Assembly (NCBI RefSeq): GCF_014873485.1
Contig: NZ_JADBDT010000001.1
Coordinates: forward strand, 1,178,001 to 1,242,000
Direction of reading: 5' to 3'
Length of the DNA: 64,000 bases
Origin: Sphingopyxis sp. OAS728
Lineage (GTDB): Bacteria; Pseudomonadota; Alphaproteobacteria; Sphingomonadales; Sphingomonadaceae
Below are positions 34,183 to 53,219 of this stretch, piece by piece (position 1 is the first letter of the stretch; every line of letters starts with the position of its first letter). A model generated the notes under the pieces. The model made no database searches. It had not been told where the DNA came from and worked only from the letters and a program-made list of their open reading frames with translations. The translations under genes were made by a program, and so were the position numbers.

Positions 34183-34196
34183 TGTAACCGGTTGCA
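34183..34196. promoter_or_regulatory. LacI-type operator O1 upstream of sugar MFS gene
   Basis: TGTAACCGGTTGCA, a near-perfect palindrome centred on CCGG, 64 bp before the MFS start. It shares the core AACCGGTT with sites at 36747 and 50767. An AACCGGTT-like palindrome is typical of LacI-family binding, and a lacI gene lies 2.6 kb downstream. A TTGCAT (-35-like) overlaps its right half. Confidence 0.75.
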
Positions 34197-34259
34197 TTGC
34201 CCCGGACCGCTCGTTAGACCGCTGCGCATACCATAGTTTCGGCGAAGAGGATATTCCGG

Positions 34260-35624
34260 ATGAACGTGCCCAGCCAGGCGACCACCCCTAGCGGCGGTCG
34301 CTCCAACGCGATGGCGGCCTTTGCCGCGGTGACCGTTTTGTTTTTCGCCTGGGGCTTCATTACTTCGCTGATCGATCCACTCGTCGCCGCGGTGAAGGGC
34401 ATCTTCACGCTAAGCGACGCAGAGGCCCAATTGTCGGCCTCGGCCTTCTTCATCGCCTATGGCCTGATGTCCTTTCCCGCCGCCGCGCTGATCGCGCGCT
34501 TCCATTCGGTGCCGTCGATACTGACCGCACTGTCGACAATGGTCGTCGGCTGCCTCGTGATGCTGGCCGCCGCGAACCTCGCGATTTACCCGCTCGTCCT
34601 TGCAGGCCTCTTCATTCTCGCGAGCGGCATCACGATCCTGCAGGTCGCGGCGAACCCGCTCGCGGCGGCGCTAGGCGATCCGAAGCGCAGCCATTTCCGC
34701 CTGACCTTCAGCCAGACCTTCAACAGCTTCGGCACCTTTCTCGGCCCGCTGATCGGCGCGCATCTGTTCCTCGAAGGCGTCGAGGTCAAGGAAGGCACGG
34801 TGGTCACCGAAGCCGTGCGTGCACAGGCGCTTGCGGGGATCGATTCGGCCTATTTCTGGATCTGCGGCCTGATCGTCGCGCTGCTGCTGTTCTTCTGGGT
34901 CAGCCGCCGCATCGTCAACGAAGCGGTGCCGCCCGCGCCGATGGGCAGCAACGCAAGCATGGGCGAACTGATCCGCGAGGCTTTGTCGTCGCGCTGGACG
35001 CTGCTCGGCGGGCTGGCGATCTTCCTCTATGTCGGCGCCGAGGTCGCGATCGGCACGCAGATGGCGCTGTTCCTAAACAGCGATGCGATCTGGGGACAGT
35101 CCGACGCCGCGTTCGGCACGTTCGGCTGGATCATGGGCAGTGACGGCGTTCCAGGCGTTTCGTTGCAGGAAGCCGGCAAGGCCGTGGCGCTCTACTGGGG
35201 CGGCGCGATGGTCGGCCGCGCGATCGGGTCGGTGCTGCTTGCGCGCTTCTCGGCGTCGAAGATGCTTGCGACCTTTACTGCCATCGCGGCTTTGCTCTGC
35301 CTCTATGTCGTTGTTGTCGGCGGTGTGACCGCGGGCTTCGTGGCGCTGTCGATCGGCCTGTTCAATTCGATCATGTTCCCGGTGATCTTCACGTTGACGC
35401 TCGAACGCTCGACCGCGCGCGCCGAAGCGACGTCGGGGCTGCTGTGCACCGCGATCGTCGGCGGGGCGGTGATCCCCTATTTCATCGGCCTGCTGTCGGG
35501 CTCGGTCGGCTATGCTGCCGCGCTGATTCTGCCGGCCGCCTGTTATGTCGCGCTTTGCATCTTCGCCATCGCAGCGGGGCGGGCGCCGGCGCGGCAGGCG
35601 AGCGCGGGCGCGACCGTTCACTAA
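34260..35624 (+). CDS. Sugar MFS permease, FucP/GluP type
   Basis: Inner-membrane proton-coupled sugar symporter with about 12 helices and 454 residues. The first helix is AAFAAVTVLFFAWGFITSLID, the pattern of the fucose permease / glucose-galactose transporter (FucP/GluP) group. FSQTFNSFGTFLGPLIGAH around residue 152 is also typical. It is the first gene of the sugar locus, preceded by operator O1, and the ABC ATPase gene follows 22 bp downstream. It probably takes up the monosaccharide released outside the cytoplasm by the secreted glycosidases. The exact sugar is unknown. Confidence 0.85.
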   Translation: MNVPSQATTPSGGRSNAMAAFAAVTVLFFAWGFITSLIDPLVAAVKGIFTLSDAEAQLSASAFFIAYGLMSFPAAALIARFHSVPSILTALSTMVVGCLVMLAAANLAIYPLVLAGLFILASGITILQVAANPLAAALGDPKRSHFRLTFSQTFNSFGTFLGPLIGAHLFLEGVEVKEGTVVTEAVRAQALAGIDSAYFWICGLIVALLLFFWVSRRIVNEAVPPAPMGSNASMGELIREALSSRWTLLGGLAIFLYVGAEVAIGTQMALFLNSDAIWGQSDAAFGTFGWIMGSDGVPGVSLQEAGKAVALYWGGAMVGRAIGSVLLARFSASKMLATFTAIAALLCLYVVVVGGVTAGFVALSIGLFNSIMFPVIFTLTLERSTARAEATSGLLCTAIVGGAVIPYFIGLLSGSVGYAAALILPAACYVALCIFAIAAGRAPARQASAGATVH

Positions 35625-35646
35625 AGGCCTGAAGAAAGAGGGGGCC

Positions 35647-50764: not shown

Positions 50765-50794
50765 TTGTAACCGGTTTCACGATCACTGTATAGG
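50765..50794 (+). promoter_or_regulatory. Operator O3 with overlapping GH3 promoter
   Basis: GTAACCGGTTTCAC starts at 50767 with the core AACCGGTT at 50769-50776. A promoter-like pair, TTGTAA (50765-50770), 18-bp spacer, TATAGG (50789-50794), overlaps the palindrome, so the operator covers the -35 region. The site lies 120 bp from the receptor start and about 125 bp from the GH3 start and can control both. Confidence 0.7.
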
Positions 50795-50900
50795 GGGAAG
50801 CGACACAGACGGATGCAATCGGGGACCAGCCCGTTTCCGGCCGAAAATCGGCCAATCCGCGTGACAATGTATAAGCAGACCCGACCGGGAAGGACGAATC

Positions 50901-53219
50901 ATGCCGCCGATGACGCGCAACCTCACACGCCTGACGCTGGCCACCCTGATGGTGGCTGGAACATTTGCCTCCACACCGTTGTTCGCAAAACCTGCCGCAA
51001 GCAGCAGTGAGGCGACGGCCGCCGATTCCGCGAGTTGGATGCGCCCTGATCCGAAGATGGATCGCTTCATCGCGGAATTGATGGCGAAGATGACGCTCGA
51101 CGAGAAGGTCGGGCAGCTATCGCTGCTGACCAGCGACTGGGATTCGACCGGTCCGACGATCCGCCAAGGCTATCAGGACGACATCCGTAAGGGCCGCATC
51201 GGGTCGATCTTCAACGCCTTTACCGCCAAATATACGCGCGAGTTGCAGCGACTGGCGGTCGAGGAAACGCGGCTGAAGATTCCGCTGCTCTTCGGATACG
51301 ACGTCATCCACGGCCACCGCACCATCTTCCCGATCTCGCTTGGCGAATCGGCGAGCTGGGACCTTAAAGCGATTGAAAAGGCTGCACGAATCTCGGCTAC
51401 GGAAGCCTCGGCCGAAGGCATCCACTGGACCTTCGCGCCGATGGTCGACGTTGCGCGCGACCCGCGCTGGGGCCGCATGTCCGAGGGCGCGGGCGAGGAT
51501 GTCTATCTCGGCAGCAAGATCGCCGTCGCGCGCGTGCGCGGATTCCAGGGCGACGATCTGAAACGCGTCGACACGATCCTCGCGACCGCCAAGCATTTCG
51601 CCGCCTATGGCGCCGCGCAGGCGGGCCGCGATTATCACACGGTCGATATTTCCGAACGCACGCTGCGCGACATCTATCTGCCGCCTTTCAAGGCCGCCGC
51701 CGATGCCGGTGCCGCGACCTTCATGACCTCGTTCAACGAATATGACGGCGTGCCCGCGTCGGGCAGCCATTATCTGCTGACCGACGTGCTGCGCGAGAAA
51801 TGGGGGTTCAAGGGCTTTGTCGTAACCGATTACACGTCGATCAACGAAATGGTCCCGCACGGCTATTCGCGCGACCTGAAACAGGCCGGCGAACAGGCGA
51901 TCAACGCCGGGGTGGACATGGATCTGCAGGGCGCGGTGTTCATGGACCACCTCGCCAAGTCGGTCGCCGAGGGCAAGGTCGACGTCAAACGCGTCGATGC
52001 GGCGGTGAAGGCGATCCTCGAAATGAAATATCGCCTCGGCCTGTTCGAGGATCCCTATCGCTATTCGGACGAGGCGCGCGAAAAGGCGACCATCTATCGC
52101 CCTGATTTCCTCGAGGCGGCGCGCGACGTGGCGCGCAAGTCGATCGTGCTCCTGAAGAACAAGGGCAACGCCCTGCCCCTTGCCGCGACCGCGAAATCGA
52201 TCGCGGTGATCGGCCCGCTCGGCAACAGCAAGGAGGACATGATCGGCAGCTGGTCCGCCGCGGGTGACCGCAAGACCCGCCCCGTCACCCTGCTGGAGGG
52301 CATGCAGGCGCGCGCGCCCAAGGGGACGACGGTCGCCTATGCACAGGGCGCGGGCTATCAGTTCGCCGATGCTGGCAAGACCGATGGCTTTGCCGAAGCG
52401 ATTGCGCTGGCGCAGAAATCGGACGTCATCGTCGCCGCGATGGGCGAGCATTGGAACATGACCGGCGAGGCGGCGAGCCGCACCTCGCTCGACCTGCCGG
52501 GCAACCAGCAGGCGTTGCTCGAAGAGCTCAAGAAGACCGGAAAGCCGATCATCCTCGTGCTGATGAGCGGGCGTCCGAACAGCATCGAGTGGGCGGACGC
52601 CAATGTCGATGCGATTCTCGAGGCCTGGTATCCGGGCACGATGGGCGGACATGCCATCGCCGATGTGCTCTATGGCGATTACAATCCGTCGGCCAAATTG
52701 CCCGTCACCTTCCCGCGCAATGTCGGGCAGGTTCCGATTTATTACGACATGAAGAACACCGGCCGGCCGATCAAGCCCGAGGATCCGAACGCGAAATATG
52801 TCTCGCGCTATCTCGATACGCCGAACACGCCGCTCTATCCGTTCGGTTACGGCCTCAGCTACACCAGCTTCGCCTACTCGCCGGTGACGCTCGACAAGGC
52901 GAAAATCCGTCCGGGCGAAAAGCTGATCGCGACGGTCACTGTGACCAATAGCGGCGCGCGCGACGGCGAAGAGGTTGTGCAGCTCTACGTCCGCGACCTC
53001 GTCGGGTCGGTGACGCGGCCGGTCAAGGAGCTCAAGGGCTTCGAGAAGATCAGCCTCAAGAAGGGAGAGAAACGGACGGTGCGCTTCACGCTCACCGACG
53101 CCGACCTGGCCTTCACGCGGCAGGACATGAGCTGGGGTAGCGAACCCGGCGAGTTCAAGCTGTGGGTCGGCCCGTCGTCGGCGGAAGGATCCGAGGCCGC
53201 TTTCGAACTGACCGAATAG
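50901..53219 (+). CDS. GH3 beta-glucosidase, BglX-like
   Basis: A 772-residue periplasmic exo-acting beta-glucosidase. Signal peptide TLATLMVAGTFASTPLFA. GH3 N-domain motifs are GYDVIHGHRTIFPISLGE, APMVDVARDPRWGRMSEG and KHFAAYGAAQ. The nucleophile Asp310 is in KGFVVTDYTS. The C-domain is typical (VAAMGEHWNMTGEAASR) and a fibronectin-III-like tail (GARDGEEVVQLYVRD) ends the protein. Overall it resembles E. coli BglX in length and order. Some GH3 members split beta-1,2-linked glucose. AAGGA lies 6 bases before the ATG. Downstream is an unrelated MFS gene. Confidence 0.94.
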   Translation: MPPMTRNLTRLTLATLMVAGTFASTPLFAKPAASSSEATAADSASWMRPDPKMDRFIAELMAKMTLDEKVGQLSLLTSDWDSTGPTIRQGYQDDIRKGRIGSIFNAFTAKYTRELQRLAVEETRLKIPLLFGYDVIHGHRTIFPISLGESASWDLKAIEKAARISATEASAEGIHWTFAPMVDVARDPRWGRMSEGAGEDVYLGSKIAVARVRGFQGDDLKRVDTILATAKHFAAYGAAQAGRDYHTVDISERTLRDIYLPPFKAAADAGAATFMTSFNEYDGVPASGSHYLLTDVLREKWGFKGFVVTDYTSINEMVPHGYSRDLKQAGEQAINAGVDMDLQGAVFMDHLAKSVAEGKVDVKRVDAAVKAILEMKYRLGLFEDPYRYSDEAREKATIYRPDFLEAARDVARKSIVLLKNKGNALPLAATAKSIAVIGPLGNSKEDMIGSWSAAGDRKTRPVTLLEGMQARAPKGTTVAYAQGAGYQFADAGKTDGFAEAIALAQKSDVIVAAMGEHWNMTGEAASRTSLDLPGNQQALLEELKKTGKPIILVLMSGRPNSIEWADANVDAILEAWYPGTMGGHAIADVLYGDYNPSAKLPVTFPRNVGQVPIYYDMKNTGRPIKPEDPNAKYVSRYLDTPNTPLYPFGYGLSYTSFAYSPVTLDKAKIRPGEKLIATVTVTNSGARDGEEVVQLYVRDLVGSVTRPVKELKGFEKISLKKGEKRTVRFTLTDADLAFTRQDMSWGSEPGEFKLWVGPSSAEGSEAAFELTE

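What the first reader, a model, noticed from the sequence alone, without database searches (positions are those of the whole stretch)
34183..53219. Beta-glucan utilisation locus, possibly for beta-1,2-glucans or periplasmic glucans
One compact region encodes an Oar-like TonB receptor, a GH144-type glucanase lipoprotein, periplasmic GH3, a GH2 lipoprotein, cytoplasmic GH1, a complete ABC importer, an MFS sugar symporter and a LacI regulator. Seen: the genes and their motifs. Known: characterised GH144 enzymes are endo-beta-1,2-glucanases and some GH3 enzymes split beta-1,2-linked glucose. Inferred: the substrate. Gram-negative loci of this kind usually use a receptor plus either an MFS or an ABC importer; this one has all three layers.
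Basis: partly seen in the sequence, partly recalled or inferred. Interest (0 to 1): 0.72.

Follow-up and report, generated by a model that had tools for sequence, protein, structure and literature searches.

The report
Beta-1,2-glucan scavenging regulon
A bacterium carries one tightly regulated gene cluster that very probably lets it cut up, import and eat beta-1,2-glucans, ring- or chain-shaped sugars that other bacteria make, and the cluster includes two unstudied enzymes that may strip chemical decorations off those sugars first.

Summary
The GH144 protein's nearest solved relative is XcSGL (538 bits), an assayed Xanthomonas GH144 enzyme specific for beta-1,2-glucan, and it keeps the proposed key residues (E231, D152, F279, Y362). 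The solute-binding protein's nearest relative with a known ligand is Lin1841, which binds beta-1,2-glucooligosaccharides. The locus is one regulon: the palindrome TGTAACCGGTTNCA, allowing one mismatch, has three sites in the 4.92-Mb genome, all here, and keeps its slots in relatives. The genome has no OpgG/OpgD or GH94/cyclic-glucan-synthase match, so recycling of its own glucans is unlikely. Comparison also shows that Xanthomonas 'MalE' (PDB 3UOR) belongs to the protein encoded directly after GH144 in 80 of 80 fetched loci, so it is probably a misnamed beta-1,2-glucooligosaccharide binder. New variant of a known kind of locus; no activity was measured.

The parts
34183..34196 (.). LacI-type operator TGTAACCGGTTGCA upstream of the MFS/ABC operon
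   Evidence: same slot in G296 and G116
34260..35624 (+). MFS sugar symporter, FucP/GluP type
   Evidence: PF07690; NCBIfam gluP 179 bits, below its cut-off of 202.55
35647..36729 (+). CUT1 ABC ATPase (MalK/UgpC type)
   Evidence: PF00005, OB_MalK; NCBIfam UgpC subfamily above cut-off
36746..36759 (.). operator TGTAACCGGTTACG upstream of lacI
36847..37866 (+). LacI-family regulator
   Evidence: PF00356 + PF13377
37883..39151 (+). solute-binding lipoprotein of the ABC importer
   Evidence: PF13416/PF01547; PDB 3UOR 370 bits, Lin1841 (5ysb) 167 bits, next 98 bits; lipobox LAAC seen
39148..40044 (+). ABC permease, MalF type
   Evidence: PF00528
40041..40856 (+). ABC permease, MalG type
   Evidence: PF00528
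40880..41635 (+). periplasmic alpha/beta-hydrolase esterase
   Evidence: PF00326/PF02230; S138, D184, H219 kept in 19 of 19 rows; all 20 family genomes with a match also have GH144
41632..42978 (+). cytoplasmic GH1 beta-glucosidase
   Evidence: PF00232; NCBIfam TIGR03356 above cut-off
42975..43847 (+). periplasmic EEP-family phosphoesterase
   Evidence: PF03372; nearest solved 3g6s, 4c1r mannosyl-6-phosphatase, 3mpr; model pLDDT 90.2, 4c1r TMq 0.83, rmsd 1.8
43850..46021 (+). GH2 lipoprotein, LacZ4-like, specificity unknown
   Evidence: PF02836/02837/00703; LacZ4 556 bits against a cut-off of 950; relatives of it at the locus in 3 of 19 close relatives
46031..47518 (-). GH144 endo-beta-1,2-glucanase lipoprotein
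   Evidence: PF10091 298 bits; 8XUL XcSGL 538 bits, CpSGL 142 bits; residues; tree
47587..50649 (-). Oar-like TonB-dependent receptor (carboxypeptidase-regulatory N-domain, no plug-domain match)
   Evidence: PF25183 207, PF00593 50, PF13620 36 bits
50766..50779 (.). operator TGTAACCGGTTTCA between the divergent receptor/GH144 and GH3 units
   Evidence: kept with at most 1 mismatch from TGTAACCGGTTACA in 17 of 19 close relatives
50901..53219 (+). periplasmic GH3 beta-glucosidase, BglX type
   Evidence: PF00933/01915/14310; NCBIfam BglX above cut-off; PDB JMB19063 807, 5xxl 737, Lin1840 538 bits

Best explanation
The locus is a LacI-controlled regulon for using beta-1,2-glucans made by other organisms. 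Proposed path: the Oar-like receptor takes glucan across the outer membrane; the lipid-anchored GH144 enzyme cuts the beta-1,2 chain internally into sophorooligosaccharides; the periplasmic esterase and EEP phosphoesterase remove acyl and phospho(glycerol) groups; GH3 trims some oligomers to glucose, which the FucP/GluP-type symporter imports, while the solute-binding protein and CUT1 importer carry oligomers inside, where GH1 splits them. The LacI protein holds the three operators until an oligomer or sophorose releases it. Shown by computation: the gene set, one regulon by operator, kinship and residues of GH144, kinship of the SBP, co-conservation. Inferred: every activity, the order of steps, the inducer, the site of each enzyme, and that this LacI protein binds these operators.
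For: GH144: 538 bits to XcSGL, which PMC12102758 reports as active on beta-1,2-glucan and not detectably on the 12 other polysaccharides tested with it (xylan was not tested); E231, D152, Y362 kept in 35 of 35 sphingomonad and 80 of 80 Xanthomonas-type rows, F279 in 35 of 35 and 79 of 80; window, sphingomonads and XcSGL form one group, 100/100, against CpSGL, 4gl3 and 3eu8. SBP: nearest relative of known ligand is Lin1841; 14 of 17 family genomes with the SBP have it at the GH144 locus; 80 of 80 Xanthomonas-type loci have an SBP within 400 bp after GH144. Regulon: 3 operator sites in 4.92 Mb, all here; receptor|GH3 operator in 17 of 19 relatives. No own synthesis: each with a control genome that rang. 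Parallel clusters in Ignavibacterium and Streptomyces (passages).
Against: No assay. GH1 and GH3 are not linkage-specific by sequence, and the residues that set beta-1,2 preference in SGR_2426 or Lin1840 were not compared. Relatives of the same locus carry a sulfatase (13 of 19) and a GH97 enzyme (8 of 19), which plain beta-1,2-glucan does not call for. Three SBP relatives (39-44% identity) lie away from GH144, two of them in genomes without it. The GH2 enzyme is unexplained. XcSGL was assayed on beta-1,2-glucan alditols; I saw no assay on cyclic glucan. Co-conservation counts come from related genomes and are not independent.
Confidence: 0.82

Rival explanations
1. The locus serves the turnover of the bacterium's own periplasmic glucans, not foreign ones.
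For: Xanthomonas, which makes such glucans (PMC11842490 passage), has a related locus.
Against: 0 matches to MdoG/OpgG (PF04349) and 0 to GH94 (PF06165), the C-terminal part of cyclic glucan synthases, in the own genome (one contig, completeness given as 100); the controls E. coli and Thermotoga rang. An outer-membrane receptor is not needed for own periplasmic glucan.
Confidence: 0.07
2. The main substrate is another glucan or glycoside (laminarin-type beta-1,3/1,6-glucan, or sophorosides and sophorolipids), and the GH144 enzyme acts on a side linkage.
For: GH3 BglX and GH1 are broad; three EEP genes of family genomes without GH144 lie in loci with another GH3; relatives add a sulfatase and GH97.
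Against: Among the 14 proteins scanned, GH144 is the only one of a chain-cutting (endo) family; no GH16, GH5 or GH17 domain was found; the SBP is Lin1841-like.
Confidence: 0.1
3. The esterase and EEP enzyme have nothing to do with glucan decorations: the EEP protein is a nuclease or phosphate scavenger and the esterase a detoxifier, both swept along.
For: EEP enzymes cover many substrates; EEP relatives at 43-49% identity occur in 3 genomes without GH144; neither gene has a tblastn match at 1e-10 in the 80 Xanthomonas-type loci.
Against: All 20 family genomes with the esterase have GH144, with the esterase within about 6 kb of it, also in genomes where no ABC genes were found; the nearest EEP relative with a named activity is a sugar-6-phosphatase; both sit inside the operon.
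Confidence: 0.35

Closest known systems
Xanthomonas campestris XcSGL (XCC2207) and the locus of its orthologues
   Same: GH144 with matching key residues; LacI, Oar-like receptor, SBP and two permeases in the same neighbourhood. Enzyme characterised in PMC12102758 (read: abstract, introduction, first part of results, first part of discussion, passages)
   Different: These loci have SBP directly after GH144, a six-hairpin protein in 74 of 80 and a different EEP-type protein in 42 of 80, no match to the window's esterase or EEP protein, and GH1 within the fetched stretch in 2 of 80
Ignavibacterium album GH144 cluster (PMC8861115, passages read)
   Same: GH144 plus a putative Lin1841-type SBP of an ABC importer and, in one passage, a putative GH3
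   Different: has GH94 and GH35; another passage says it has no beta-glucosidase homolog; receptor, LacI operator, EEP and esterase are not mentioned in the passages seen
Streptomyces griseus SGR_2422-2427 (PMC12369401: abstract, passages, first part of discussion read)
   Same: ABC importer with Lin1841-like SBP, GH1, an endo-beta-1,2-glucanase homologue, an esterase-annotated protein
   Different: glucanase is GH193; Gram-positive, no outer-membrane receptor; GH1 kinship to ours not tested
Listeria innocua lin1839-1841 (known here through passages of PMC12369401 and PMC8861115)
   Same: GH3, Sop-binding SBP
   Different: uses a GH94 phosphorylase; the own genome here has no GH94 match

Membership tests
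GH144 endo-beta-1,2-glucanase | PF10091 / sequence kinship with characterised GH144 enzymes | tested here: met
   298 bits; XcSGL 538, CpSGL 142 bits; tree
GH144 endo-beta-1,2-glucanase | clan residues E239, F286, Y367 of XcSGL and an acidic residue at CpSGL E142 (named in PMC12102758) | tested here: met
   window E231, F279, Y362, D152
GH144 endo-beta-1,2-glucanase | hydrolysis of beta-1,2-glucan only, endo mode | not testable with these tools
   needs purified enzyme
Lin1841-type beta-1,2-glucooligosaccharide SBP | Lin1841 is the nearest relative of known ligand among solved structures | tested here: met
   167 bits against 98 for the next; for the Xanthomonas SBP 225 against 124
Lin1841-type beta-1,2-glucooligosaccharide SBP | ligand-contact residues of Lin1841 kept | not tested
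   the Lin1841 paper is not held
beta-1,2-preferring GH3 / GH1 beta-glucosidase | subsite +1 residues (Lin1840 W271, R572, Y583; SGR_2426 M171, Q229, W291, from PMC12369401) | not tested
LacI regulon | shared palindromic operator before the transcription units, conserved in relatives | tested here: met
   binding itself not testable here
EEP sugar phosphatase (BT3783 type) | EEP fold and catalytic residues (residue set recalled) | tested here: met
   N32, E68, H159, D194, N196, D249, D276, H277 invariant in 18 rows; fold
EEP sugar phosphatase (BT3783 type) | acts on a sugar phosphate or phosphodiester | not testable with these tools
   needs assay
own periplasmic glucan (OPG/CGS) metabolism | OpgG/OpgD or cyclic glucan synthase in the genome | tested here: not met

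The most novel reading that the evidence does not exclude
The sphingomonad version of the locus is built for decorated, anionic beta-1,2-glucans: the EEP enzyme is a phosphodiesterase or phosphatase that takes phosphoglycerol (or phosphate) off C6 of glucose, and the esterase takes off succinyl or acetyl groups, so that GH144, GH3 and the importer can act. To my knowledge these would be the first dedicated undecorating enzymes for envelope glucans; relatives that add a sulfatase and GH97 would then use further decorated forms. The same comparison makes the Xanthomonas 'MalE' a beta-1,2-glucooligosaccharide receptor.
Probability: 0.3. Interest if true: 0.75.

Novelty: new variant of a known kind. 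Interest (0 to 1): 0.5.

Why it matters
Beta-1,2-glucans matter in symbiosis, infection and osmotic adaptation (PMC12102758, abstract), yet who eats them, and how substituted forms are handled, is little known. The locus offers a complete, single-regulon pathway in a Gram-negative group, names two candidate enzymes for removing natural substituents, and suggests a function for a solved but unexplained binding protein (3UOR, listed with binding specificity 'Unknown' in PMC7676653, passage seen).

Tried and rejected
Own-glucan recycling was tested and set aside. A placement tree was made with the window, 35 sphingomonad relatives, 14 Xanthomonas-type loci, XcSGL, CpSGL, 4gl3 and 3eu8; GH189 and the exo-type BDI_3064 were not put in the tree (BDI_3064 scores 134 bits), and 5 of the 40 family relatives with GH144 (G021, G028, G086, G105, G285) were not fetched, so their neighbourhoods are unseen. 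The operator-like hit at 51821 is the coding sequence of the GH3 VTDY motif and was rejected. The idea that the EEP gene is specific to beta-1,2-glucan loci was weakened: of 18 family genomes with a match of 43% identity or more, 3 lack GH144 and have it near another GH3. The idea that MFS + ABC + receptor is unusual was weakened (9 of 19 relatives). The six-hairpin protein of the Xanthomonas-type loci was modelled (mean pLDDT 82.5); its best fold matches (dextran dextrinase/GH15, GH94, GH65, GH116 types) have a query-normalised TM of about 0.36-0.47, so it was not classified. An apparent 1431-aa frame holding GH144 in G117 gave only PF10091 and was not pursued. Whether the own genome has a GH97 gene outside the window was not searched. 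Paper searches for sphingomonad beta-1,2-glucan loci and for the X. citri protein as a glucan binder showed none that says so in the listings and passages I saw; the library holds open-licence papers only, and the papers on Lin1841 and on the 3UOR structure are not held.
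Full report
WHAT IS THERE. Order on the plus strand: operator 34183; MFS; ABC ATPase; operator 36746; lacI; solute-binding protein (SBP); two permeases; esterase; GH1; EEP phosphoesterase; GH2; then on the minus strand GH144 and, upstream of it, the Oar-like receptor; operator 50766; GH3 on the plus strand. The genome is one contig of 4,919,217 bases. The best GH144 relatives that carry a name are mostly Sphingopyxis; I take the host to be a sphingomonad of that kind, by inference.

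THE GLUCANASE. Pfam PF10091 298 bits, the only such match in the genome. The nearest solved structure is 8XUL, XcSGL = XCC2207 (538 bits), far above the other solved relatives (194 bits and less); the orthologue in L095 is 55% identical over 91% of our protein. PMC12102758 (read: abstract, introduction, first part of results, first part of discussion, passages) reports XcSGL as active on beta-1,2-glucan and not detectably on the 12 other polysaccharides tested with it. The residues it names for the clan (E239, F286, Y367 in XcSGL; an acidic residue at CpSGL E142) correspond to window E231, F279, Y362 and D152. In relatives: E, Y and D in 35 of 35 sphingomonad rows and 80 of 80 Xanthomonas-type rows, F in 35 of 35 and 79 of 80. 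In the 8XUL chain the acid position reads Q; the numbering offset of 14 suggests that the crystallised chain is an E239Q form (inference). In a tree of 54 rows, 51 proteobacterial proteins including the window and XcSGL form one group (100/100) against CpSGL and two structures called 'putative glucoamylase' (4gl3, 3eu8); the window sits in a clade of 20 sphingomonad rows (99/100). Since XcSGL inside and CpSGL outside the group are both beta-1,2-glucanases, the window's enzyme very probably is one.

THE IMPORTER. The SBP's nearest solved relatives are 3UOR (370 bits) and Lin1841 (167 bits), then 98 bits. Lin1841 binds beta-1,2-glucooligosaccharides (PMC12369401 passages). 3UOR is the X. citri 'MalE'; PMC7676653 lists its binding specificity as 'Unknown' (passages). 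The SBP encoded in locus L095 (Xanthomonas cissicola) differs from 3UOR at one of 428 positions and has Lin1841 as next hit (225 bits, then 124). In 80 of 80 an SBP of 42-49% identity to ours lies within 400 bp after GH144 on the same strand; permeases in 79 and 78, an Oar-like receptor in 75 (69 directly upstream), LacI in 72 (some contigs end early). In the window's family, 17 of 298 genomes have the SBP at E 1e-30 or better; 14 of these have it in the GH144 locus, 3 (G089, G128, G172; 39-44% identity) do not. So the Xanthomonas protein is probably a sophorooligosaccharide binder; this rests on neighbourhood and kinship, not on binding data.

ONE REGULON. A palindrome with core TGTAACCGGTTNC lies before the MFS/ABC unit, before lacI and between receptor and GH3. 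The exact 13-mer occurs 3 times in the genome, reversed-pattern control 0; the 14-mer with up to 1 mismatch still has only these 3 sites, each read on both strands, control 1 per strand. In the window, up to 2 mismatches, 8 strand matches at 4 places against 0.25 expected; the fourth place codes for the GH3 motif VTDY. Among the 19 relatives of the window's clade, 17 keep a copy with at most 1 mismatch between receptor and GH3 (not G123, G215), and copies also stand before lacI, before MFS genes and beside GH97 genes in some. Thus MFS, ABC importer, receptor/GH144 and GH3 are most likely one LacI regulon.

The esterase has a complete S138-D184-H219 triad in 19 of 19 rows. In 298 family genomes it occurs in 20, all 20 among the 41 genomes with GH144, and within about 6 kb of it in each (one genome, G215, has a second, partial copy elsewhere); hypergeometric 4e-20, to be read loosely because the genomes are related. 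The EEP protein occurs at 43% identity or more in 18 genomes: 15 beside GH144 (the window's included), 3 (G242, G212, G291) in genomes without GH144, near another GH3; 6 further genomes have matches of 32-38% (G123's is beside GH144). Both genes are found with GH144 in relatives where no SBP or permease was found, for example G060, G081, G125, G069. The EEP model (mean pLDDT 90.2) matches 3mpr, 4c1r (mannosyl-6-phosphatase BT3783; TMq 0.83, rmsd 1.8) and 3g6s best, and the usual EEP residues are invariant in 18 rows. Sinorhizobium cyclic beta-1,2-glucan carries glycerophosphoryl or succinyl groups at C6 (PMC7569799, abstract). Hence the proposal that EEP and esterase remove these groups. Against it: no assay, the 3 EEP genes outside GH144 loci, and no match of these two proteins in the Xanthomonas-type loci, although 42 of 80 of these have a different EEP-type protein nearby.

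WHOSE GLUCAN. The own genome has no match to MdoG/OpgG (PF04349; control E. coli rang) and none to GH94 (PF06165; control Thermotoga rang). Foreign glucan is therefore the likely source. GH144 of this kind is in 41 of 298 family genomes and 5 of 386 class genomes, the own genome counted in both.

WHAT DOES NOT FIT. Of the 19 close relatives 13 have a sulfatase near GH3, including one of the same genus (G116), and 8 have a GH97 gene; the window has neither, the own genome shows one partial sulfatase match (39% identity over 185 residues), and GH97 was not searched outside the window. This may mean more heavily decorated substrates, or that some relatives use another polymer. GH2 is present in 3 of 19 relatives; its role is open. 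GH1 and GH3 specificity was not resolved. Neighbourhoods were seen in 35 of the 40 family relatives with GH144.

KNOWN OR NEW. Clusters that join a beta-1,2-glucanase with a Lin1841-type importer are known in Ignavibacterium (PMC8861115, passages) and Streptomyces (PMC12369401). New here, as far as the searches named in Tried and rejected show, are the receptor-fed, LacI-controlled sphingomonad form, its operator, its esterase/EEP pair and the link to 3UOR. I rate it a new variant of a known kind.

Noticed in passing
L095:11477-12847 (and the corresponding gene in 79 further loci of L091-L170): The X. citri 'MalE' protein (PDB 3UOR, one difference in 428 residues to L095) belongs to the SBP encoded directly after the beta-1,2-glucanase gene; probably misnamed.
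   Followed up: yes
L095:14588-17725; L174:3208-6249; L177:3487-6570: A conserved protein of about 1000 residues (F5/8 type C domain plus six-hairpin domain, weak GDE_C match below cut-off) follows the GH144/ABC genes in 74 of 80 Xanthomonas-type loci and sits by GH144 in 8 sphingomonad genomes. Fold like GH94/GH15/GH65/GH116 but TM about 0.36-0.47. Candidate unclassified hydrolase, perhaps for the alpha-1,6 link of the Xanthomonas cyclic glucan (speculation). No match in the own genome (no control).
   Followed up: partly
L095:17920-18690: An EEP-superfamily protein of another kind ends the Xanthomonas cluster (42 of 80 loci).
   Followed up: partly
L047:5507-9328, L036:7781-11509: Sulfatase and GH97 genes beside the locus in relatives, with operator copies near some GH97 genes.
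   Followed up: partly
window 51821-51834: Operator-like palindrome inside GH3; it is the codons of the VTDY motif, and similar matches recur in several relatives' GH3 genes.
   Followed up: yes
L126: Record titled Bacillus subtilis SK7B5 carries a Stenotrophomonas-like GH144 locus: mislabelled or contaminated.
   Followed up: no
passages on XAC2312 in PMC9108719, PMC7748154, PMC6337780: XAC2312, called membrane protein or TonB-dependent receptor, is one of two genes (with a GH3 beta-glucosidase) shared by phoP-mutant and mild NaCl/sorbitol comparisons in X. citri; by locus-tag order it may be the receptor of the GH144 locus (not checked by sequence).
   Followed up: no
window 53264-54502: MFS_3 (EntS-like) exporter gene directly after GH3; also present after GH3 in G296, while G116 has a sulfatase there.
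   Followed up: partly
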